DNA of 25,135 bases from a virus. Positions 5,166-16,121 of the stretch are shown piece by piece (the stretch's first letter is position 1; each line of letters opens with the position of its first letter). Below the pieces are notes generated by a model, which ran no database searches, was not told the origin of the DNA, and worked only from the letters and a program-made list of their open reading frames with translations. Position numbers and translations under genes: made by a program. Location of the stretch: IMG/VR virus record IMGVR_UViG_3300044844_000817, positions 1-25,135 of that record. One strand, given 5' to 3'.

Positions 5166-7009
5166 TGGCAGCCTCTGTTGTCGTCTTAAAGTCAGGCGCT
5201 GGTATCAAGCGCGACGGTACTATCTTCGAGGGTGACTTTTACGTTGACGGCTCTTGGGTTAGATTCCAACGTGGATTGCCTCGTAAGATCTGGGGCTACC
5301 GTGCCATCTCGTTGTACCTACCGCAAATCGTTCGTGGCCTAAGCACCTTTGTGCAAAACCAATTGGTCTACACGCACGCTGGATCACGGGACACAATTAA
5401 ACGGTTCACCATAAACAGCTCGTTTATTCCTTCTGTGGTCAGCGATCGTACACCAGTTGATGTTGGTGCTACTGGTACGGTCACATTGACTGGTGGGGCT
5501 GCCGGCTCTGTAAACAGCGTCACGGTTAACGGTGTGACTATTACCTCAGGCGCGGTTGCATTTAGCGTAGACTTGCCAACAACCGCAACTGCGGTGGCTG
5601 CTAACATAACAGCGTACACATCGACACCTAACTACACTGCCACTGCAGTTGGTAGCGTAATAACAATCACGGCATCGACAGGTGGCTCAGCAAGCAATGG
5701 CTTTGTTGTTGCGACAACGTTAACAACCATAACAGCGACCAGCACGAACATGGTTGGTGGCTCTAACGGCCTAATTGTTGACAACAATAACACATGGATG
5801 TTCGACGTAATGTTCGACTCCGTTTCATTGGATAACTTATTGATTGCTTCCGTCGCACCTAATCTAGAGTCGATCGACTCTTCTGCTGACGGTCAAATAT
5901 TCACAGGTAATGTGCTAGGCACCGATCCGTTGGTCGAGGTTGAACTTCCTGTCAATGCTAATGCCTCTGGAGGCATGGTCGTCTTGCACCCTTACTTGTT
6001 CTACTACGGAACGGCAGGTATTGTCGGATGGTCTGTTCCTGGAGATCCAAGAGATTTGACTGGTTCAGGATCTGGACAGGCTCGTGTAGCTGGACAAAAG
6101 ATACTTAAAGGATTGCCATTGCGTGCTGGTGCTGGTTCTGCACCTGCTGGCCTGTTCTGGGCTTACAATGCACTTATCCGCTCTACATTCACTGGCGGTG
6201 CTACAGTATTTCAGTTCGATACCATATCAGCTGAGACTACTGTGCTGAGCCCAAACAGCATCATTGAGTACGACGGCATTTACTACTGGTGCGGTGTGGA
6301 TCGATTTTTAATGTTTAACGGTGTGGTGCGTGAGTTACCAAACACCATGAATCTTAACTTCTTTTTTGATAGCCTAAACAATGAACAAGCGCAAAAGGTA
6401 TTCGCCACCAAAGTACCACGTTTCGGAGAGATATGGTGGTGCTTTCCTCTCGGAACCAGCACCGAATGTAATCACGCTATTATTTACAATGTACGCGAGA
6501 ACACCTGGTACGACACAGAACTCCCAAACTCAGGGCGCTCTGCTGGCTCATTCGTTCCCTTCTTTGCGGCTCCATTGACGACTGGCGTAACTAACCAAAA
6601 CGGTTTGGGTTACAAAGTCTGGTTGCAGGAACAGGGATTAGACGAGATCGACGGCACAACAGTTAATGCGATCGTCTCTTATTTTGAAACGGCTGACTTG
6701 TCATTGGCTGTGCTTAACAATCAAAATCGCAAAGTTAAAATTAGCTACATCGAGCCTGATTTTGTTCAGGAAGGCGACATGACGGTAGAAGTAAAAGGTC
6801 GTGCCAACGCTAGAGCACCAACAGTGACCAGCAACGTAGTAACATTTGTGGCTAATCCAGGTTCAGATCCTGCAGCTCAAATCGTGCCGTTCAAAGAACA
6901 ACGCCGTGAGATGCGCGTAAGGTTCACAAGCAACGCAATTGGTGGTGACTACCAAATGGGCCAAGTGCTAATGCACATCGAGCCAGGCGACGGAACGATA
7001 ACAGGATGA
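5165..7009 (+). CDS. Probable tail tube/nozzle protein with an inserted Ig-like domain
   Basis: The 614-aa protein begins with a segment (GSWVRFQRGLPRKIWGYRAI) similar in pattern to nozzle/packaged-DNA-stabilisation proteins of podoviruses such as P22 gp10 and T7 gp12, which form the distal tail tube. A beta-rich Ig-like module appears inserted at about residues 95-200; it starts VGATGTVTLTGGAAG and contains NSVTVNGVTI and AVGSVITITAS, and the surrounding propeller-like sequence resumes after it. Later parts have the alternating aromatic/Gly strands of a beta-propeller (for example EYDGIYYWCGVDRFLMFNGV and NVRENTWYDTELPNSGRSAG). The C-terminal part contains KISYIEPDF and REMRVRFTSNAIGG, probably a closing beta domain. 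Gene order adaptor, beta protein, nozzle agrees. Some codon use around 5985-6130 (GGA, AGA) differs from flanks. Family assignment is by memory and moderately secure. Confidence 0.55.
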   Translation: MAASVVVLKSGAGIKRDGTIFEGDFYVDGSWVRFQRGLPRKIWGYRAISLYLPQIVRGLSTFVQNQLVYTHAGSRDTIKRFTINSSFIPSVVSDRTPVDVGATGTVTLTGGAAGSVNSVTVNGVTITSGAVAFSVDLPTTATAVAANITAYTSTPNYTATAVGSVITITASTGGSASNGFVVATTLTTITATSTNMVGGSNGLIVDNNNTWMFDVMFDSVSLDNLLIASVAPNLESIDSSADGQIFTGNVLGTDPLVEVELPVNANASGGMVVLHPYLFYYGTAGIVGWSVPGDPRDLTGSGSGQARVAGQKILKGLPLRAGAGSAPAGLFWAYNALIRSTFTGGATVFQFDTISAETTVLSPNSIIEYDGIYYWCGVDRFLMFNGVVRELPNTMNLNFFFDSLNNEQAQKVFATKVPRFGEIWWCFPLGTSTECNHAIIYNVRENTWYDTELPNSGRSAGSFVPFFAAPLTTGVTNQNGLGYKVWLQEQGLDEIDGTTVNAIVSYFETADLSLAVLNNQNRKVKISYIEPDFVQEGDMTVEVKGRANARAPTVTSNVVTFVANPGSDPAAQIVPFKEQRREMRVRFTSNAIGGDYQMGQVLMHIEPGDGTITG

Positions 7010-7245
7010 GTTTCAACATTACATTGCCTGTTGGGTTGGAGCTCATGGATTGGGCAGACCAAATTACGTTTGACTTAGACAACCAAACATCTCTTTCAAA
7101 ATTGATGAGCGACGATGAATGGCAGGATTGGGCAGTACAGTTTGTAACAGCAACGGGGTTGTCAGGATATAATGTCCCAACACCGTACGCATTTAATGAT
7201 TGGCAACCGTGGGCAGATAGCTTGTGCAAGGCACTAGAAGCATAA
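7006..7245 (+). CDS. Small acidic Trp-rich protein in the virion operon
   Basis: A 79-aa, strongly acidic protein with five or more Trp residues in W-A-D/W-A-V contexts (LMDWADQ, WQDWAVQF, NDWQPWADSL). It has no membrane segment or signal. The ATGA overlap with the nozzle-like gene indicates coupled translation, and it is followed 13 bases later by the first large ejection-type gene. Small acidic proteins in this position may be tail accessory proteins or chaperones, but I do not recognise the family. Confidence 0.6.
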   Translation: MSFNITLPVGLELMDWADQITFDLDNQTSLSKLMSDDEWQDWAVQFVTATGLSGYNVPTPYAFNDWQPWADSLCKALEA

Positions 7246-7258
7246 TAGGGGTAATAAA

Positions 7259-9145
7259 ATGGCAAACAAAGACAACTTAATTAAATTGGTCGCACAAAAG
7301 CTTGGACCAGATAAGCTTAACCAAATGGTCGAACAGGCAGCGCAAGCGCTTAGCCAAGACCCTGACGTTACGCCAGACGTCATTGATAAGATCATTGAGA
7401 TGTTTGAGTTTGTTGCTGAGAACCCTGACGAGTATCAGTCAGTGGTGCAGCAAGCCATTCAAACAGGTGCGTTAGACGAAGGCGACTTGCCCCCAGAGTT
7501 TGACCCAGTAATTATTGCCGTAATATTGCTTGCCTTCTATGGTTTGCGTGATCGCGTTGGCGGTGAAATGCAAATGGCCCAAGGTGGCCTAGCTAGCATG
7601 GCTAACCGCGTGCAGTCTGCCGGCAGAAACGGCGACACGATGCTCGCGCATATCACACCACAAGAGGCCGCACTTTTAGAGCGCCGTGGTGGCTTGGGCT
7701 CAATCAACCCAGCGACTGGCTTGCCTGAGTATGGGTTCTTTAAAAAGCTAAAGAAAATAGTTAAGGCCGTAGCGCCAATTGCTGTTTCATTTATTCCAGG
7801 TATTGGTCCACTAGCTGCTGCAGCGTTGTCTGCCGGTACCACTGCGGTATTGGGTGGTAACCTTAAGGAAAGCTTGTTGTCTGGGCTTGGCGGCGCTTTA
7901 GGTACAGTAAAGGGCATGAATTTTGCTGGTAACCTTGGTCAAAGTTTAAATCAAGCCGTACCAGGCTTAAGCACATTAGGCCTAAGCAACCAAGTACTTG
8001 GCTCTGGCATACTAGGTGGTGCGGCAAGTGCTATTGCAGGTAAGAACCCATTAATTGGCGCGCTGACTGCTGGTCTAACTAGCTACGCCGCGCCTAAGAT
8101 TGCAGAATCATTAAATGCTAACATAGCAGGTTCGCAAGGTGTTACAGCTGACATGGTACGTGGCGCAAACATCGCTGCGCAAACTGGTGGCAATCCACTA
8201 GTTGGCGCTGGTGCTGCCGGTATTGGTAGTATCGCTGGCAACCTAATGAGCGATGGCTCTTTGTTAGGTACTCCACAAACTATAGCGGGCAATCCTATAC
8301 AAGGTGATGGAACAGGTGTTCGACTTGAACCTACTTCAGGTGATCCATTTACTTCTGCTAACCCGTATGATCTTTCAACATCTCAATACGGCGGAAGCCA
8401 AGGTGTCACACTCCCTACGCCAACAAACGGCATGACCGGTGGCATTGGGTATGATTTGCCAACAACAGTGCCAATGGGTACGCAAGGTGTACAAGGTTCT
8501 GCACTTGCATCAACACCTGCTGCAACAAGCGGTGCATTATCTCAAGTGGCACAAACAGCTGCTGCGCCATCAACCGGCTTCGGCTTCGGTGACATTGCTA
8601 AAGTAGGCTTAATCGGCAGCTTGATCGCTGGTAAGACACCGCAACAAGCGCAACAAAATATTCAAGATTCTGCGTTAACTGCTCAACAAAAAGAGGGCAT
8701 GCTGCGCTCACTAACTAACTACCAATTCAGTCCAAACATGACTACCTTCCCAACCGAAGGTACGGCCGAGTATGATAAATTGATGTCTGATCTGTCGAAA
8801 GGCATTGAGCAAACTTACTCTAACCCAACCTTTACAGAAGTAAAAGCTAAAGGTGGCCGCACTAAACGTCAACCACAAGGCGCATTAAGCCAAATGTCAT
8901 ACGCCGTAGAGGGTCCAGGCACTGGTCGCTCAGACAGCATAGACGCTAGATTATCTGACGGCGAGTATGTCATTGATGCCGAAACTGTGGCATTATTAGG
9001 TAATGGTTCAACACGAGCAGGTGCCGCGATGCTCGATCAAATGAGACAAGGTATTAGACAACAAAAGGGTAAGGCTTTAGCTAAGGGCAAGTTTAGTCCT
9101 GACGCCAAATCGCCCTTGGCATACATGAAAGGCGGATTACGATAA
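7259..9145 (+). CDS. Probable internal virion/ejection protein, glycine-zipper rich
   Basis: The 628-aa protein starts after a clear AGGGG ribosome binding site. Order of parts: an acidic helical N-terminus (1-90); a short hydrophobic helix (about 82-92, VIIAVILLAFYGL); a segment with M-A-Q-G-G-L; long small-residue hydrophobic stretches with glycine zippers (about 170-330, e.g. PGIGPLAAAALSAG and AGAAGIGSIAGNLMS), able to insert in membranes; a Pro/Thr/Gly low-complexity region (about 345-470); and a C-terminal domain starting near 545 with GPGTGRSDSIDARLSDGEYV. I have seen that C-terminal sequence pattern in many environmental phage virion proteins. The composition suits a protein stored in the capsid and ejected to form a trans-envelope channel, like the T7 gp14-16 group by role, not by homology. 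It ends TAATG into the next gene. Confidence 0.6.
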   Translation: MANKDNLIKLVAQKLGPDKLNQMVEQAAQALSQDPDVTPDVIDKIIEMFEFVAENPDEYQSVVQQAIQTGALDEGDLPPEFDPVIIAVILLAFYGLRDRVGGEMQMAQGGLASMANRVQSAGRNGDTMLAHITPQEAALLERRGGLGSINPATGLPEYGFFKKLKKIVKAVAPIAVSFIPGIGPLAAAALSAGTTAVLGGNLKESLLSGLGGALGTVKGMNFAGNLGQSLNQAVPGLSTLGLSNQVLGSGILGGAASAIAGKNPLIGALTAGLTSYAAPKIAESLNANIAGSQGVTADMVRGANIAAQTGGNPLVGAGAAGIGSIAGNLMSDGSLLGTPQTIAGNPIQGDGTGVRLEPTSGDPFTSANPYDLSTSQYGGSQGVTLPTPTNGMTGGIGYDLPTTVPMGTQGVQGSALASTPAATSGALSQVAQTAAAPSTGFGFGDIAKVGLIGSLIAGKTPQQAQQNIQDSALTAQQKEGMLRSLTNYQFSPNMTTFPTEGTAEYDKLMSDLSKGIEQTYSNPTFTEVKAKGGRTKRQPQGALSQMSYAVEGPGTGRSDSIDARLSDGEYVIDAETVALLGNGSTRAGAAMLDQMRQGIRQQKGKALAKGKFSPDAKSPLAYMKGGLR

Positions 9146-12100
9146 TGGCATCTTTATTTGCAGGCACCCCACAACAGGCACCTAGCTACGCGGCAACCAC
9201 GTCCGATGTGCCAAAGTGGTTACAAGACTACACCGTTGACTTGTTCTCACAACAACGTGCTGTATCAGGTACACCTTTCCAACCTTACACGTTGCCTAGG
9301 ATTGCACAACAAACAGCGCCTACCACTGCCGCGTATGACTTAATACAAAAGAACATTGGTGCATATCAGCCAACCGTTCAAAATGCAATCACTGGTACAC
9401 AAGGCTTAGCTGGTCAATCCGCCGTAAGCAACATCGGCACCTACATGAACCCGTACACTCAAAACGTGACGGATCAAATCGCTAAGCTCGGCGCTCGTAA
9501 CCTATCTGAAAACTTATTGCCGGCTGTTAGCGATCAGTTTATTAAGGCTGGTCAGTTTGGCTCATCAGGTATGGGTACATTCGGTGGCCGCGCATTGCGT
9601 GACACGCAAGAATCAATATTAGCTAACCAGGCTGCAGCGTTGCAATCAGGTTATACACAAGCGTTGGGCGCAAGCCAAGCGGATTTAACACGTCAACAGG
9701 GTGCACTAGCACTAACCGCTGACTTAGCTAAAGCACAACAAGGCTTGTCTACAGCTGACGCTGCTGCATTAGAATCTATAGGCACTGCACAACAAGCGCA
9801 ACAACAAAAAGGTTTAGACGTAGCGTACCAAGACTTTTTAGCGCAACGCAACTTCCCACAAGAGCAAATCAACGCGATGAGTACAACATTGCGTGGCTTA
9901 CCTGCAAGTGCAACACCGACTACAGGTACAACGTCAGGCTATCAAACACAGTTCACACCAAGCACGTTAGGTCAAATTGCCGGCGCGTACAGCTTGTTCC
10001 AAGGTATCAACAGCGCAGCAAACCCATTAGTTGGCAAAGCTAAAGGTGGCGTGGTTAATGGCTACGCTGACGGCGGCGCAGTATCAGGCGGTAATGATTT
10101 GCATGCTTCTGTAATGGCTGACTACGGTCAATACTTTAAACGCGGTGGTGAGGTTGAAGGTTACGCTAGAGGTGGGACAGCCAGTCCACAAGTTGGAATG
10201 TCTAGCATAGGTAACAAATCTATTCCAGAGTTACAACAATATATTGCTGATTTAAAAAATAATAATATTATGCCAGGAGCTATTAATCGAGGTAGCCAAC
10301 CTAGTATGGGTGGTATATTTGGCAAACTAATGAGCGCCGGTATGCTTAAGATGGCTCAACAAGAGCTAGACAACAGACAAGCCTCTGGTGCACCAATGTC
10401 TACCGCTGATCATTACACACAGATGACGTCTGCACCCAACGTAACCTTAGCTGCGCCAGTTAGTATGCCGGCCAACATCGACGAGCTTAACGCTAAGTAC
10501 TATCAAGGTGGCGACCCATACGGTAAGTATTTAGGTCAAGGTTATTCACACGGTGGCATGGTGCCAGGCTACGCTGAAGAGGGTTACGTTGATGCAGAAG
10601 ATCCTGCACCAATGGTTGATGGTGGCCAAGCGTTTGCTGATCAGTACGCACAAGGTCAGTTGGAGTACCCAACACAACAAGACGCACCGGTGCGAGTAGC
10701 GCCAACGATGTCTTACATGCAAGACCCTGAGGTAATGCAGGCTAACGCTGAGCGTAAGGCGTTGCTAAAACAATTACAAACATCTTTGTCTAACGCCCCG
10801 GCTGGTCGAGACACTGGTCCTACTGAGTCTGAGATGTGGTTCAATCGTGCCGCAGCGTTCTTAGACCCAGGCAAGACTGGCTCATTCGGTGAGGGTCTAC
10901 AACACCTATCTGCTGTAGAGGCCGCGCATAAGGCTGAGCAACGCAAGGCTAAGATTGCCAACCAAGCTGCAGACTTACAACGTCTACAGGCCCGCTCAGA
11001 GTTAGCTCAAAAACAATACGAGATGACAATGGACGAAGGTAAACGTCGCATGATTGAGCAATACCTAACACCAACACCTCGTTCAACTGATGGTGGCAAA
11101 GTTGGCGGCTACGACACTGGTGTGCCTGATAACATGAAGGCCTTGTTGTTATCTCAAGAGCCAGCTGATGCGGTTAAAACATTGGTCGAGATGGCTAAAG
11201 AAAATAACAAGCCTTCTGATTTAATCAGAGGCGTTAAGTTCTTAGTCGGTAACGGTTCAATAACCCCTGTGCAAGGTGACGCAATTATTCAAGAGCAATT
11301 ACAAGGTAAGTTTGAAATGGTTGACGTGGCTATCCCTGAGTTGGGTGGTACTTTTAAACTTAGTGGCACTGAGGCTCGTAAGTACTATGATTCAGGTGTG
11401 TTGCCTAAACGTTTTGCGCCAACGGCTGCACCTGCTGAAGCAACTACACAAACTACTGCGCCAGGTGGCGCTCCCGCACCTGCTGGGGCACCTGCTCAAG
11501 CTGCGCCTAAACAATTACCACTATCACAAGAGCAAATGAAAGCTAAAGAGACTGGCTTAGTTGAACAGTCTAAAGCCGACATTGCAGCGAGTGGTGACTT
11601 GTTAGCTCAAAAATCGTTTGCTAAGCAACAAAAAGATGCGGCAAACCTTGTGCTTGGTTACGCTACAAAGAGCCCTAAATCGTTTGGTATCCTTGCCGAT
11701 CCTACGTTCTCAAATGCACTGGCTAGCCTAGTTGATACTGGCGTTAATACGCCGTGGGGTAGCGTTGGTTTGGCCGTTGAAGAGCCTATCGCTAAGCTTA
11801 AACTAACTGGCCCTGAGGCCTCTGTTCGTCAATTAGCCGCTGCACCTATAGCGTTGATTGAGGTTGGTTACCGTAAGATGTTCTTAAAAGGCGAAGGCGC
11901 CGTGTCTAACATGGAGGGTGCGTTAACCAAGTACATTGGTCCACAACTTTCTGATAATGCTAAGACCGTGCAACTTAAAGCTGGCATGATTACCATTGGT
12001 GCTGAGAAGCAAGAAAAAATAATTGATGCCTTTGAAAAATACAAAGAGCAGCACCCAGAGGCAGGTCCTCGTTCATTCTATCAAACACCTGAGTATAAAC

Positions 12101-12243
12101 GTATCAACGATAGCTATGAAACTAAATACCGTGCGTTTGCTGAGAAGAACGGCATACCAGTTGCTGCTAGCACGTCTGGCGGGAGCTTAGCAGATCGCAT
12201 AAGGCAAGAGCGAGTTAATCGTCAAAACAAAGAAGGAAAATAA
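9145..12243 (+). CDS. Large internal virion/ejection-type protein with GYAxGG repeats
   Basis: The 1032-aa product begins with an Ala/Gln-rich helical domain (about 1-275; the early part is conserved-looking, e.g. FGSSGMGTFGGRALRDT). Next come three copies of a Gly-Tyr-Ala peptide: KGGVVNGYADGG (near 306), RGGEVEGYARGG (near 339) and HGGMVPGYAEEG (near 475). Between the last two sits a short A+T-richer insert (about residues 343-405, starting SPQVGMSSIGNKS). Downstream are a coiled-coil region (about 530-640, rich in Lys, Glu, Ala), a Pro/Ala linker (about 755-792) and an alpha-helical C-terminal domain (about 800-1032). No enzymatic motif was found. Size, low-complexity linkers and position between two other giant proteins suggest a DNA-ejection protein packed in the capsid. 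It ends two bases before the next ATG. Confidence 0.6.
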   Translation: MASLFAGTPQQAPSYAATTSDVPKWLQDYTVDLFSQQRAVSGTPFQPYTLPRIAQQTAPTTAAYDLIQKNIGAYQPTVQNAITGTQGLAGQSAVSNIGTYMNPYTQNVTDQIAKLGARNLSENLLPAVSDQFIKAGQFGSSGMGTFGGRALRDTQESILANQAAALQSGYTQALGASQADLTRQQGALALTADLAKAQQGLSTADAAALESIGTAQQAQQQKGLDVAYQDFLAQRNFPQEQINAMSTTLRGLPASATPTTGTTSGYQTQFTPSTLGQIAGAYSLFQGINSAANPLVGKAKGGVVNGYADGGAVSGGNDLHASVMADYGQYFKRGGEVEGYARGGTASPQVGMSSIGNKSIPELQQYIADLKNNNIMPGAINRGSQPSMGGIFGKLMSAGMLKMAQQELDNRQASGAPMSTADHYTQMTSAPNVTLAAPVSMPANIDELNAKYYQGGDPYGKYLGQGYSHGGMVPGYAEEGYVDAEDPAPMVDGGQAFADQYAQGQLEYPTQQDAPVRVAPTMSYMQDPEVMQANAERKALLKQLQTSLSNAPAGRDTGPTESEMWFNRAAAFLDPGKTGSFGEGLQHLSAVEAAHKAEQRKAKIANQAADLQRLQARSELAQKQYEMTMDEGKRRMIEQYLTPTPRSTDGGKVGGYDTGVPDNMKALLLSQEPADAVKTLVEMAKENNKPSDLIRGVKFLVGNGSITPVQGDAIIQEQLQGKFEMVDVAIPELGGTFKLSGTEARKYYDSGVLPKRFAPTAAPAEATTQTTAPGGAPAPAGAPAQAAPKQLPLSQEQMKAKETGLVEQSKADIAASGDLLAQKSFAKQQKDAANLVLGYATKSPKSFGILADPTFSNALASLVDTGVNTPWGSVGLAVEEPIAKLKLTGPEASVRQLAAAPIALIEVGYRKMFLKGEGAVSNMEGALTKYIGPQLSDNAKTVQLKAGMITIGAEKQEKIIDAFEKYKEQHPEAGPRSFYQTPEYKRINDSYETKYRAFAEKNGIPVAASTSGGSLADRIRQERVNRQNKEGK
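10060..10584 (+). repeat. Three GYAxGG peptide repeats in the 1032-aa protein
   Basis: Copies lie at 10060-10077, 10159-10176 and 10567-10584. At the DNA level they share GG(C/T)TACGCT followed by two variable codons or a Gly-rich tail, and each is preceded by a G-G-x-V codon run. The stretch after the second copy (about 10180-10350) is visibly richer in A+T than its flanks. Confidence 0.75.
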
Positions 12244-12245
12244 TC

Positions 12246-15200
12246 ATGGCTGATATAGAGATGACGCTTAAACCAGTACCCGTCACGCCTGATAGTGCGC
12301 CATTGATTGATTATGACAAGTTAACCGACGATCAAAAGCTTATAGCAAATAAAATCTTTGACGAGGCAGAAAGACAGGGGGTCGACCCTGATCTTATGTT
12401 GTCGCTTGCTCACATTGAAAACCGTTTCAAAACTGGCCCATCACCCAAGGGTGCGCTTGGCCCAATGCAGCTCATGCCTGGTACGGCTAAAGATTTAGGT
12501 GTTGACCCTAATAACATCGATCAAAATATCACCGGTGGTGTTACTTACTTTAAGATAATGCTCGACAAGTACAAGGATCCGTACATTGCAGGTATTGCCT
12601 ACAATGCTGGCCCAAGTGTTGCCGATAAGTTCTTAGAGACAGACGACCTTAGCGGTCTTGATATAGAAACACTTGACTATATTGATCAACTAGACAGACT
12701 GTATAAACCAAAAGGCGCTGATGTTGATGTGGACAACGTGCCGGTTATTCAGCCATTGCCGGAAGAGAAGGCTGGCTTTGAACGCGACGCTATGGCTGAG
12801 GCCGCTGGCGCAGGTGCTGGTGCAACAGCAGGTTTAGCTAGCGGTGCTTACACTGAGACTAAGCTTAAACAAGCCGAGGCTGCAGAAAAAGTAGCACAAC
12901 GTCAAGCGGCCGCTGCGGAAAAACGCGTCGTGGCTGGTGAGACTCGCGTATCAGCAAGAGAGGGCGAGCACACTGGTCGTCTTAAAATACAATCCGCCGC
13001 CGCAGAGAACTCAGTAAAAGAGGCAGCTCGTTTACGTCAGGCGCAATTGGCCGCAGAGGAACGTTTGGCTAAGGCTACAGAAAACGCTCGTCGCTACGGT
13101 GTGTTAGAAGAGACAGTTAAAACTACCCCTGGTGGCGTTACGCAGCAAGGTGGTATTGGTTCTGGCGCGATGCGTCACTCTAACGTTATGGGTGAGATTA
13201 CCGAGGCCAACGTTGTGCGTAAAGGCACCGAGAGTGCAGGTCCTGGGTACTCACAAAAATCACGACTAATTGTTCCTGACAAATACTCTGGCGCGTCTGT
13301 TTATAATTCAGAGCAACTTGCTGCACAAAAAGAGTTGGCCGCCGCTGAGGCAGAGCATCAACGTTTAATCAAGGCTGCAGAGAAGGCAGAAGGCGCTGCT
13401 CAAAAAGAGGCGGATCGCTTACGCAACCTAACAGAGAAAGGCCCAACCGGCAAGACCATAGCGCAAGCTAATTTAGATATCGCTAAAGATGAATACGCTA
13501 AGGCTGCGGCTAATAAAGCCCCTGGTGTTGGTACAACCGTCGCTCGTTACTTGAGCAGAATACCTGGTATGTCTATGTTGCCAGGTGCTGGTGCAGGCTT
13601 GGATATTGTTGAGGCCCGTGAGCGCTTTAAGCAAGGCGACTACCCTGGTGCAGCAATCAGTGGCGTTGGTGCTGTTGGCGGTGCGTTGTCTATGATCCCA
13701 CCGATTGGTCCAGTTGGCGCAGGTCTTAAAGTTATCGGTGGCTTAACGTCACTCGCTGCCCCTGCCTTAAACTACTACCGTGACAGTAGAGAACCAGAAC
13801 AAACACCTGGCTACGCTGCTGGCGGTAAAGTAGCTGCTATTCTTGCAGAGAAAGCAAAAAAAGCAAGCACAAACATAGATGAAATTTTAAAATCTAAAAA
13901 AGCGCCAATGACTACTCCGCGTGGAACAGGGTTACCATTAATGCCTCGTTCAACAGGGATGTATACTCAAGGTATTGAACAAAAAAATCTTGCTCGTATG
14001 CCAATGGTAGACGCCGCAAGGGCCAGTGGAAAACAACCAAAATATACAGGTCGGATGCAAGATTTACTTGATAGCCCAACCGCTCGTAAACAAGCCAACA
14101 ACTTAATTGAAAAAGGCTTAGATTTGGGAATGACTGAGTGGTATGGTACAGAACCATTACGACAAGTAGCGCTAGATATTGGTTTAACTCAACAAAAATA
14201 CGACGAGTTCCTTGCTCAATTAGCATCTGCGTCTCAACGCAATCCTGTTGATCAACAAAATAAAATGGGCAGTTATCTTTGGCATTTAAGTCAAACAGGA
14301 AGATTGCCAGAAGATGCATACTTACTAACCAACAAAATTAAACGTGGTAAAGAAGTAGCCCCAGTTGGAACGGCTATTGAATTACCTCCTGGGTATGGTT
14401 CATTGGCGCAAGGTGATATTTTTACTCGCGGTAAACAAATTGCTGCTGGTGATATTGAAGGTGCATTGCCTGAAGAAAGAAAACTAGGTACTTTTTATAG
14501 AAACCTTCAAGGTAATCTTGTTCCAGTAACAGTAGATGTTAATGCTGTACGTGGCCCAATAATTGAACGCGGTGACCCACGGTGGTTAACGTCTAAATTA
14601 GTGGAAAAAGATGAAGAAGGAAATATACTTGCTACTCACTTTCCACGTAAAGATTTTGAATCTGGAAAATTATCATTAAAACAAGCAAGGGCTCGCCCTG
14701 GTTTTTGGGAAGCTGCGCCATCTGGATCTGAATACGCAGGATTTGAAGATTTTTGGCAACGTGCAGCTAAAAGATACGGCGTTGCCCCAGCAGAAGCACA
14801 GGCTTTAGGCTGGTATGGATCGGCAGATGTGACTGCTTTAAAAACTAAACCAGAACTTTATATTGATAACCTTGAACGTTTAATTCGTCGCACGGCTGAG
14901 CAAACAGGGCAAAACCCAACGACAGTTATGCAAGATGTATTAAAAGGTGACACGTACTTAAAGAAAAAAGGCGGTTTAATAAAAGGTTACGCTGAAGCTG
15001 GCAAGGTTGATATTGACGAGGTTGCTAAATACTACGGCAATAGACTAGACGCCAGCAATAGCGACATGCGCCCACCTGTTATTTCAGACAAGGGTAACGT
15101 TGTCCGCAATATGGTTGCACAAAGAAACGCCCTTGCAGACAAGTATTTTGGTGGTGCTGGCCGACCTATCTCTAAGGGATTAAGTGCAGCTCGTCAATTT

Positions 15201-16121
15201 TTAAATGATGAGGTTCATACTTACACTAGCCCAGGTAACCGTTTCGGTGATTGGACTATTGGCCAAATGCCAGAGGCAATATACGACTACACGACCGCAG
15301 GCATGCCTGGGCCAGTATTAGGCAACGAGTGGGCACCTAATCCTGCAACCGGAGGGATGCTACACACAGATCCGTATGGCGATATTCGTGGGTTGGATTT
15401 ATTAAACTTGGTTGGCGCTGAGGTTCCGTTTGTGGCTGCCGGCAAGGCTGCCTATAAAGTAGCTAAACCATTAGCCCGTGCGGCCGCTGAAAATACAATC
15501 GGTGGTATTAATCGTGCAAACAGAGCATTGCGTACACCAGAGCCAATATTGATGAATGTTGAAACTGGTACAGCAAACAGATCAGACGATGCCGCATCGA
15601 CATTGCGTAGATTTAAAGAAGCCAGTGGGTCATCAAAAGATTACCCGGTTGGCCAAGGTGTTTGGACCGGTGAAGAAGGCGCTGCGCAATTTCATCCTAA
15701 CGTAATGGTGAACATGCAAGACTTTTCACCAGAGCAGATCGATCATATACGCCGCATGTTAGATCAGTATGGTATCGGCGCTGGTCGGTTTAGACCAGAC
15801 CTTATTCAGCAACCTAGCCGTGCAAACGCCGTGCAAATATTAGACGCAGATCCGGAATGGATAAAAAACATTGGTCAACATTACGCTGAAAATGATTTGC
15901 CGGCGGTTGTGTTTGCTCAGCCAAATAATAGGGCTATGGTTTTTAATATGAATAGCGACATGCCAAAAGATTTGTCAGTACTATTAGACGCGCCGCAACT
16001 TGCAGGTAAAAAAGTACGTTACGGTGAGGCTAACATCCCGACAGATCGAAACTACATAGACAGCGTCGAATCAGCGAGAGTCACTGGCACCAAAAAGGCG
16101 CCTAAGAAAAAAGCAAAATGA
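12246..16121 (+). CDS. 1291-aa ejection-type protein with N-terminal lytic transglycosylase domain
   Basis: Residues about 30-130 form an SLT-type lytic transglycosylase: catalytic Glu58 in AHIENRF, then GALGPMQLMPGTA (69-81) and AYNAG (118-122). It would open peptidoglycan locally during DNA entry. Next come an Ala/Gly-rich segment (about 184-203), a long Ala/Glu/Arg/Lys coiled coil (about 205-430), a Gly/hydrophobic zipper region (about 440-515), a GYAAGG peptide at 522, a distinct module (about 540-905) encoded by A+T-richer DNA, a second motif at 914 (KGGLIKGYAEAGKV), and a C-terminal part (about 925-1291) ending in a Lys-rich tail (KKAPKKKAK). The middle and C-terminal modules are not recognised. 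The plan, lytic domain plus huge helical body, parallels T7 gp16-type internal core proteins in role. The 3' end overlaps a minus-strand small gene by 51 bases. Confidence 0.78.
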   Translation: MADIEMTLKPVPVTPDSAPLIDYDKLTDDQKLIANKIFDEAERQGVDPDLMLSLAHIENRFKTGPSPKGALGPMQLMPGTAKDLGVDPNNIDQNITGGVTYFKIMLDKYKDPYIAGIAYNAGPSVADKFLETDDLSGLDIETLDYIDQLDRLYKPKGADVDVDNVPVIQPLPEEKAGFERDAMAEAAGAGAGATAGLASGAYTETKLKQAEAAEKVAQRQAAAAEKRVVAGETRVSAREGEHTGRLKIQSAAAENSVKEAARLRQAQLAAEERLAKATENARRYGVLEETVKTTPGGVTQQGGIGSGAMRHSNVMGEITEANVVRKGTESAGPGYSQKSRLIVPDKYSGASVYNSEQLAAQKELAAAEAEHQRLIKAAEKAEGAAQKEADRLRNLTEKGPTGKTIAQANLDIAKDEYAKAAANKAPGVGTTVARYLSRIPGMSMLPGAGAGLDIVEARERFKQGDYPGAAISGVGAVGGALSMIPPIGPVGAGLKVIGGLTSLAAPALNYYRDSREPEQTPGYAAGGKVAAILAEKAKKASTNIDEILKSKKAPMTTPRGTGLPLMPRSTGMYTQGIEQKNLARMPMVDAARASGKQPKYTGRMQDLLDSPTARKQANNLIEKGLDLGMTEWYGTEPLRQVALDIGLTQQKYDEFLAQLASASQRNPVDQQNKMGSYLWHLSQTGRLPEDAYLLTNKIKRGKEVAPVGTAIELPPGYGSLAQGDIFTRGKQIAAGDIEGALPEERKLGTFYRNLQGNLVPVTVDVNAVRGPIIERGDPRWLTSKLVEKDEEGNILATHFPRKDFESGKLSLKQARARPGFWEAAPSGSEYAGFEDFWQRAAKRYGVAPAEAQALGWYGSADVTALKTKPELYIDNLERLIRRTAEQTGQNPTTVMQDVLKGDTYLKKKGGLIKGYAEAGKVDIDEVAKYYGNRLDASNSDMRPPVISDKGNVVRNMVAQRNALADKYFGGAGRPISKGLSAARQFLNDEVHTYTSPGNRFGDWTIGQMPEAIYDYTTAGMPGPVLGNEWAPNPATGGMLHTDPYGDIRGLDLLNLVGAEVPFVAAGKAAYKVAKPLARAAAENTIGGINRANRALRTPEPILMNVETGTANRSDDAASTLRRFKEASGSSKDYPVGQGVWTGEEGAAQFHPNVMVNMQDFSPEQIDHIRRMLDQYGIGAGRFRPDLIQQPSRANAVQILDADPEWIKNIGQHYAENDLPAVVFAQPNNRAMVFNMNSDMPKDLSVLLDAPQLAGKKVRYGEANIPTDRNYIDSVESARVTGTKKAPKKKAK
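13809..15002 (+). repeat. Two GYAxGG repeats flanking an A+T-rich module in the 1291-aa protein
   Basis: Copies lie at 13809-13826 (GYAAGG) and 14985-15002 (GYAEAG). The DNA between about 13850 and 14965 uses AAA, CAA, GAA and TTA more than the Gly/Ala-coding flanks. Both copies share GG(C/T)TACGCTG with the repeats in the preceding gene. Confidence 0.72.

What the first reader, a model, noticed from the sequence alone, without database searches (positions are those of the whole stretch)
13850..14965. A foreign-looking 370-residue module inside the transglycosylase-bearing protein
Between the two GYAxGG copies lies a segment that reads unlike the rest of the protein: A+T-rich codons, many aromatic and charged residues (e.g. 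GMTEWYGTEPL, MGSYLWHLSQTG, GFEDFWQRAAKRYG) rather than Ala/Gly/Lys helices. It looks like a globular domain acquired by a structural protein, possibly delivered into the host with the DNA. I cannot name the fold.
Basis: partly seen in the sequence, partly recalled or inferred. Interest (0 to 1): 0.5.

Follow-up and report, generated by a model that had tools for sequence, protein, structure and literature searches.

The report
Swappable glycosylase-like cassette in ejection protein
A phage protein that probably travels into the host with the phage DNA carries an interchangeable plug-in domain that looks like a very divergent DNA-base-removing enzyme, and relatives of the phage carry a different plug-in, or none, at the same place.

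Summary
Residues 551-909 of the 1291-aa transglycosylase (SLT) protein (13896-14972) form a confidently predicted domain (AlphaFold pLDDT 92.7) with clearly lower GC3 than neighbouring genes. It is a cassette: four relatives share the SLT half (76-93%); at this site one carries a very divergent homologue, one a dissimilar segment, two no insert. L252, an empty site, has one GYAEGG where the window has two such motifs around the module. Elsewhere the module is stand-alone or joined to ADP-ribosyltransferase or cell-wall-hydrolase domains, coded among terminase, portal and coat genes. It matches Pfam DUF7178 (unknown function). Top structural rows are HhH-GPD-type DNA glycosylases (TmOgg2 Z 10.2, AGOG 6.7). 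Profile alignment puts the Ogg2 Lys/Asp pair on K746 and D764, invariant in 100 of 100 distinct modules from scans not baited with them, 18 apart as in Ogg2. Against: Foldseek alone is not significant, the hairpin signature is missing, no Pfam glycosylase model matches, and the sister module's model gives no PDB match. Best reading: an injected, DNA-acting, glycosylase-like effector in an exchangeable slot; delivery, activity and substrate are inferred.

The parts
12246..16121 (+). 1291-aa SLT-bearing (T7 gp16-like) ejection/internal virion protein that hosts the module
   Evidence: directly downstream of a DNA-ejection-protein gene
12354..12626 (+). SLT lytic transglycosylase domain (residues 37-127)
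   Evidence: Pfam PF01464 E 6.2e-12, 45.6 bits, cut-off 21.3
13809..13826 (+). left GYAxGG motif (GYAAGG)
   Evidence: also present in L250, FGAGG in L249
13896..14972 (+). exchangeable module, DUF7178-type, HhH-GPD-like predicted fold (residues 551-909)
   Evidence: Pfam PF23802 over cut-off; AlphaFold pLDDT 92.7, pTM 0.90; VIA 3n0u Z 10.2
14412..14552 (+). best-scoring stretch to the DUF7178 profile (residues 723-769), contains the Lys and Asp
14232..14234 (+). S663 (module S113), invariant serine of the SASQR/ATSPR motif
   Evidence: 100 of 100
14481..14483 (+). K746 (module K196), aligned with the Ogg2 Lys of the K-D pair
14535..14537 (+). D764 (module D214), aligned with the Ogg2 Asp of the K-D pair
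14811..14813 (+). W856 (module W306), aligned with the Trp that ends the Ogg2 C-terminal helix motif
   Evidence: conserved 99 of 100 with one gap, but part of the bait
14985..15002 (+). right GYAxGG-type motif (GYAEAG) within KKKGGLIKGYAEAGKV
   Evidence: the empty site of L252 has one GYAEGG in its place
14967..15467 (+). conserved host-protein segment after the cassette (residues 908-1074), which follows the SLT half directly in L252
9145..12243 (+). upstream ejection protein with four GYxxGG-type motifs, also variable near these motifs
   Evidence: phrog_4287

Best explanation
The module is a plug-in cassette of a gp16-like ejection protein. Shown by sequence comparison: it is present, replaced or absent as a unit at a fixed site between glycine-rich GYAxGG-type linkers, and the same module is used in other (polyvalent-type) proteins coded among virion genes. 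Strongly suggested: it has an HhH-GPD DNA-glycosylase-like fold of its own family (DUF7178), closest to the Ogg2/AGOG branch, and keeps a Lys and an Asp at the Ogg2 catalytic positions. Inferred: on infection the SLT part opens peptidoglycan, the rest of the protein enters the cytoplasm with the DNA, and the module acts there on DNA bases as a glycosylase (Asp assists the attack, Lys forms the Schiff base of an AP-lyase; this chemistry is recalled for the family, not tested). I lean slightly towards clearing lesions from the incoming genome (about 55:45) over attacking host DNA. The GYAxGG linkers would act as flexible joints that tolerate replacement of the domain between them.
For: Cassette: four relatives: one divergent homologue, one dissimilar segment, two without insert; no DUF7178 match anywhere in those four records. 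Linker: GGx[VI] follows 58 of 59 distinct close modules in one 35-residue window, against 181 of 2568 background windows. Context: 42 distinct complete close ORFs at E 0.001 match SLT in 0, ART-PolyVal in 13, LPD23 in 1, PcfJ in 1; 54 distant ones match cell-wall hydrolase in 3, SLT in 1, methyltransferase in 1; neighbours are terminase, portal and coat genes. Fold: model pLDDT 92.7; VIA Z 10.2 to TmOgg2 over 185 of 209 residues, 6.7 to Pa-AGOG, 4.3 to the phage DNA glycinyltransferase 8z2n, then unrelated rows at 3.7 and below; 11 of 976 chains reach Z 2. Sequence: hhalign to a profile of ten Ogg2 proteins scores 30.0 and aligns K and D with the Ogg2 pair; 0 of 200 column shuffles reach it, maximum 23.6, and 0 of 16 real unrelated families, maximum 20.4. 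K, D and S are invariant in 100 of 100 distinct modules once the loci of the scan baited with K and D are set aside. Spacings K-D 18, D-R 5 and Y-W 26 equal those of 3n0u and 9o00. PDB variants 9o02 (Lys position changed) and 9o01 (Asp to Asn) differ at the same two residues. Constraint: 87% amino-acid but 68% nucleotide identity to L002, dS not computable.
Against: Foldseek alone finds no PDB match at E 0.001 (best 0.18). The VIA tool warns that Z under about 13 may mean only a common arrangement in helical models. hhalign probability on its database scale is only 10%. The GxG hairpin signature is absent, and PF00730 and PF22175 do not match. The divergent sister module, clearly homologous to this one, shows no PDB chain at Z 2 or more among 508 compared, and its profile does not beat shuffles against Ogg2 (22 of 100 reach it). 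Even the DUF7178 match is partial and near threshold: the best single stretch in the window scores 18.5 bits, and most close relatives scanned fall just under the cut-off of 27. Virion presence, ejection and activity are untested.
Confidence: 0.5

Rival explanations
1. The module has the glycosylase-like fold but is a non-catalytic DNA-binding or structural piece of the ejection apparatus (for example the cytoplasmic DNA-binding part described for T7 gp16).
For: [quoted passage not shown] the hairpin signature is altered.
Against: Two of four close relatives have no insert at the site, so it is not needed for the machine; 29 of 96 distinct complete ORFs have less than 170 residues on either side of the module; the invariant Lys, Asp and Ser look catalytic.
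Confidence: 0.25
2. The module is an amino-acid:DNA-transferase-like enzyme of thymine hypermodification (ADDT, PaMx11 gp46).
For: Structure 8z2n (PaMx11 gp46) is the first Foldseek row and the fourth VIA row.
Against: No Pfam ADDT match, while gp46 itself matches it; profile no better than shuffles (32 of 200 reach it); the hydroxymethyluracil-kinase and thymidylate-synthase families are absent from 8 records (4 with the module, 4 close relatives of the window phage; some may be fragments) and present in the PaMx11 control.
Confidence: 0.05
3. The module belongs to some other, unrecognised helical enzyme or effector fold, and the glycosylase resemblance is chance.
For: Foldseek not significant; the sister module gives no match and no profile signal.
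Against: The first three VIA rows are DNA glycosylases, with a gap to unrelated rows; the profile alignment puts the two invariant residues on the Ogg2 pair with the same spacing.
Confidence: 0.2

Closest known systems
Pfam PF23802 DUF7178
   Same: The window module passes the curated cut-off (31.2 and 31.5 bits, cut-off 27); 45 of 46 members of A4 match at E 1 or better.
   Different: DUF7178 has no assigned function; matches cover part of the 193-position model, and most close relatives scanned fall slightly under the cut-off.
Ogg2 8-oxoguanine DNA glycosylase/AP lyase (3n0u, 9o00; Pfam PF22175)
   Same: Predicted fold, Lys and Asp in register, spacings 18, 5 and 26.
   Different: No GxG hairpin signature, a longer stretch between Asp and the C-terminal helix motif, PF22175 not matched, the Asp of the DLxxW motif is Gln here.
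Phage polyvalent proteins (Iyer et al. 2017, PMC5512222)
   Same: Multi-domain, coded beside virion genes; module joined to ART-PolyVal (13 of 42), LPD23 (1) and PcfJ (1).
   Different: 'Glycosylase' occurs 0 times in that paper's main text (word search; passages seen only); no metallopeptidase family among the matches at E 0.001; here the host protein is an SLT ejection protein.
T7 gp16-type ejection proteins
   Same: N-terminal transglycosylase, long C-terminal part, ejection-protein neighbour; domain swapping among ejection proteins is described (PMC8954989, passages).
   Different: The swap described in the passages seen is of the peptidoglycan hydrolase; here it is a putative DNA-acting domain in the middle of the protein.
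Ordinary phage-coded glycosylases (HhH-GPD protein gp35 of Streptomyces phage Sf3, PMC5336643; pyrimidine dimer glycosylase of roseophage CRP-810, PMC11288001)
   Same: Phages coding base-excision enzymes are already known (passages).
   Different: Separate genes; the passages seen do not place them in virion proteins.
Brig1, a DNA glycosylase of bacterial antiviral defence (PMC11078745)
   Same: A glycosylase used in phage-host conflict.
   Different: Its structural homologues are uracil DNA glycosylases and it defends the bacterium (passages); here the fold is HhH-GPD-like and phage-borne.

Membership tests
DUF7178 (PF23802) | score over the curated cut-off | tested here: met
   31.2 and 31.5 bits for the module, 27.9 for the whole protein, against 27; best single stretch alone 18.5
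HhH-GPD superfamily (fold) | helical glycosylase fold over most of the domain | tested here: inconclusive
   VIA Z 10.2 over 185 of 209 residues of 3n0u, AGOG 6.7, next unrelated 3.7; but Foldseek not significant, helical-model caveat, and no match for the sister model
HhH-GPD superfamily (fold) | Asp before the helix after the hairpin, Dx[HN]xxR | tested here: met
   D214 invariant 100 of 100; aligned with the Ogg2 Asp; helix 215-225 starts right after it
Ogg2 / bifunctional glycosylases | Lys 18 residues before the Asp | tested here: met
   K196 invariant and spacing 18 in 100 of 100, same spacing in 3n0u and 9o00; that the pair is catalytic in Ogg2 is recalled
HhH-GPD (PF00730) / Ogg-HhH (PF22175) | G-x-G hairpin signature and Pfam model match | tested here: not met
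   PEERKLGTF / NPKPxTF instead of GxGxK; no match in hmmscan. Not filed as a member of these Pfam families
Amino acid:DNA transferase (PF18724) | Pfam match and hypermodification partner genes | tested here: not met
   no match; partner families absent in 8 records, present in the control
Polyvalent proteins | effector domains fused in one long protein coded among virion genes | tested here: met
   for the module family: 13 of 42 close ORFs match ART-PolyVal, neighbours TerL and portal in three contigs checked. For the window protein itself only SLT and DUF7178 are named
gp16-like ejection proteins | SLT at the N-terminus and ejection-protein neighbour | tested here: met
gp16-like ejection proteins | present in the virion and ejected into the cell | not testable with these tools
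   needs virion proteomics

The most novel reading that the evidence does not exclude
Tailed phages inject a DNA glycosylase/AP-lyase from the virion: DUF7178 is a new, essentially viral branch of the HhH-GPD superfamily, carried as a plug-in effector between GYAxGG joints that work as a general exchange site for effector domains in ejection proteins.
Probability: 0.35. Interest if true: 0.8.

Novelty: new variant of a known kind. Interest (0 to 1): 0.62.

Why it matters
It gives a domain of unknown function that recurs in environmental viral contigs a testable biochemical identity (two named residues, a reaction class) and shows an exchangeable slot in an ejection protein with filled, differently filled and empty states in close relatives. 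If right, a base-excision enzyme would join ADP-ribosyltransferases and polymerases as a class of virion-injected enzymes, and the slot would be a natural place to look for further injected effectors.

Tried and rejected
Sequence search of the module profile against the PDB gave only 3 hits, at E 1.2-1.5, none a glycosylase. Foldseek against PDB gave no hit at E 0.001. Foldseek against predicted viral structures gave 5 hits at E 0.001, none with a functional name except one called cell wall hydrolase; hits called ART-PolyVal-like follow at 2e-3. They agree with the fusions seen but name no function. FeoB_Cyto, wHTH-HSP90_Na-assoc, Phage_L5_gp82 and other weak Pfam hits were not used. A pattern-baited genome scan found one relative (a MAG contig) in a collection of 84,980 species (two 8-residue baits, so a lower bound); tblastn with one distant module found none in 72,556 plasmid records; phage isolates gave 4 of 50,697 records (the same four). 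The sister module found no isolate phage and no PDB chain at Z 2 or more (this absence is not evidence of a different fold). dS could not be computed. No held paper holds the word DUF7178. Injected or virion glycosylases were looked for; none was seen in the listings or in the passages read, and most listed papers were not opened. The library lacks most subscription papers.

Full report
WHAT IS THERE. The window is a 25,135-base IMG/VR virus record. ORF 12246-16121 codes 1291 aa with an SLT transglycosylase domain at residues 37-127, directly downstream of a gene matching a 'DNA ejection protein' family (phrog_4287). Residues 551-909 stand out. GC3 is 0.228 against 0.334-0.471 in 141 overlapping windows of 359 codons from neighbouring structural genes and the rest of this gene. 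The flanking motifs are GYAAGG at residue 522 and GYAEAG at 914.

A CASSETTE, NOT A FIXED DOMAIN. A search with the SLT half (residues 1-535) found four close relatives, L249-L252, at 76-93% identity; a fifth hit, L253, is a short 37% match and was dropped. L249 carries a very different segment that proves to be a distant homologue of the module (below). L250 carries a segment without detectable blastp similarity between the same conserved parts. L251 continues after the motif into a different C-terminal half without the module. In L252 the segment equivalent to window residues 909-1074 follows the SLT half directly, with a single GYAEGG. DUF7178 is not found anywhere in those four records (they may be fragments). 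The upstream ejection protein behaves alike: residues 350-454, between its GYARGG (339) and GYSHGG (466) motifs, are missing in L249, and L250 has about 237 residues in place of about 124 there, while L251 is 89% identical over the whole length.

THE MODULE ELSEWHERE. Close relatives (60-87% identity) come from IMG/VR contigs, but in other proteins. Of 96 distinct complete ORFs, 29 have under 170 residues on either side of the module, 23 a longer N-terminal flank only, 19 a longer C-terminal flank only and 25 both. At E 0.001, of the 42 close ones 0 match SLT, 13 ART-PolyVal, 2 Phage_L5_gp82, 1 LPD23, 1 PcfJ; of the 54 distant ones 3 match a cell-wall hydrolase, 1 a methyltransferase, 1 SLT. 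That last, L111, is an independent SLT fusion, again with GYAEGG, GYAEGG and GYAHGG linkers around the module. The three contigs checked place the gene between terminase and portal, L052 with one more gene between. Roseobacter phages CRP-3 and CRP-212 place it between portal and coat genes; in Microcystis phage MJing1 it lies a few genes upstream of a DUF5309 gene, which I recall as a coat protein family, and its portal is not annotated. CRP-901 carries a more distant copy in a 456-aa protein. In 58 of 59 distinct close modules the domain is followed by GGx[VI] in one 35-residue window, against 181 of 2568 background windows taken from all close ORFs, repeats included. The protein is under constraint: 87% amino-acid but 68% nucleotide identity to L002, so the exchange is not recent.

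WHAT FOLD. Pfam names it DUF7178, unknown function. AlphaFold2 on 46 sequences gives pLDDT 92.7, pTM 0.90, mostly helical. Foldseek against PDB has no significant hit (best E 0.18, the phage enzyme 8z2n). The VIA second look ranks TmOgg2 (3n0u) Z 10.2 with 185 of 209 residues, Pa-AGOG 6.7 and 6.5, the phage DNA glycinyltransferase 8z2n 4.3 and 8z2m 3.7, then unrelated rows (chaperonins, a peroxidase) at 3.7 or less; 11 of 976 chains reach Z 2. The tool warns that helical models can reach Z 13-14 by arrangement alone, so I looked for independent support. A profile of ten Ogg2 proteins aligns with the module at score 30.0 (P 0.003, probability 10%) and pairs K196 and D214 of the module with the Lys and Asp of Ogg2, and W306 with the Trp ending the Ogg2 helix motif. 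Column-shuffled Ogg2 profiles reach at most 23.6 (0 of 200), the reversed profile 16.8, 16 unrelated real families at most 20.4. A general HhH-GPD profile of 19 sequences scores 24.3 (0 of 200 shuffles). Spacings K-D 18, D-R 5 and Y-W 26 are identical in the module, 3n0u and 9o00. That this Lys and Asp are the catalytic pair of Ogg2 is recalled; PDB variants 9o02 and 9o01 changed at exactly those residues fit it. K, D and S are invariant in 100 of 100 distinct modules when the loci of the scan baited with K and D are set aside, and in 136 of 136 with them.

AGAINST. The hairpin G-x-G signature is absent; PF00730 and PF22175 do not match. The DUF7178 match itself is partial: 31.2 bits for the module but 18.5 for its best single stretch in the six-frame search. 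The L249-type sister module (73 loci; the size classes printed are mostly 465-580 aa) is clearly homologous to ours (P 1.9e-11) and keeps K-x3-Y and D-A-H with spacing 23, but its model (pLDDT 87.7) has no PDB chain at Z 2 or more among 508 compared, and its profile does not beat shuffles against Ogg2 (22 of 100 reach it). In the same set-up ADDT, a family I recall as related to glycosylases, scores only 14.2 against Ogg2, so the profile method may miss true distant relatives. I put the fold assignment at about 0.75 and catalytic activity at about 0.5.

HOW IT WOULD WORK. In T7, gp16 carries the transglycosylase at its N-terminus, and its C-terminal part is presumed to reach the cytoplasm (PMC8954989, passages). 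By analogy the window protein would open peptidoglycan and bring the module into the host with the DNA. There a Lys/Asp glycosylase would remove bases from DNA. Repair of the incoming genome fits Ogg2-type chemistry and the open-water origin of the isolates (sea and lake water; exposure to sunlight is my inference); an attack on host DNA fits the company of ADP-ribosyltransferases. I lean slightly to the former. The hypermodification rival is disfavoured because 8 records (4 with the module, 4 close relatives) lack the kinase and thymidylate-synthase families that PaMx11 has. The glycine-rich motifs are best read as tolerant joints; whether they are also cleavage sites is open.

NOVELTY. Polyvalent proteins and swapping in ejection proteins are known (PMC5512222 and PMC8954989, passages), and so are ordinary phage genes for glycosylases (PMC5336643 and PMC11288001, passages). 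I saw no report of a glycosylase-like domain among injected phage proteins in my searches of the held library, which lacks most subscription papers. Hence a new variant of a known kind, with a sharp biochemical prediction.

Noticed in passing
L250, ORF at 6646-9687, residues ~563-836: A dissimilar segment (GGPGFSGLQHVDP...) without a Pfam match occupies the same cassette site in a close relative.
   Followed up: partly
window 9145-12243 and its homologues in L249-L252: The upstream ejection protein has four GYxxGG-type motifs and gains or loses segments near them; in L252 its homologous parts lie on two ORFs.
   Followed up: partly
L111:2200-4869: Independent fusion of an SLT domain with a distant DUF7178 module, again with GYAEGG linkers.
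   Followed up: yes
L251 and L252, C-terminal ~500 residues: Both share a C-terminal half, compared by eye, that differs from that of the window protein: a second exchange point in the same gene.
   Followed up: no
L300-L372: A second subfamily (73 loci) with conserved KVPSY...GDAHWSR, mostly in ORFs of 465-580 aa; no isolate phage carries it in the collection searched.
   Followed up: partly
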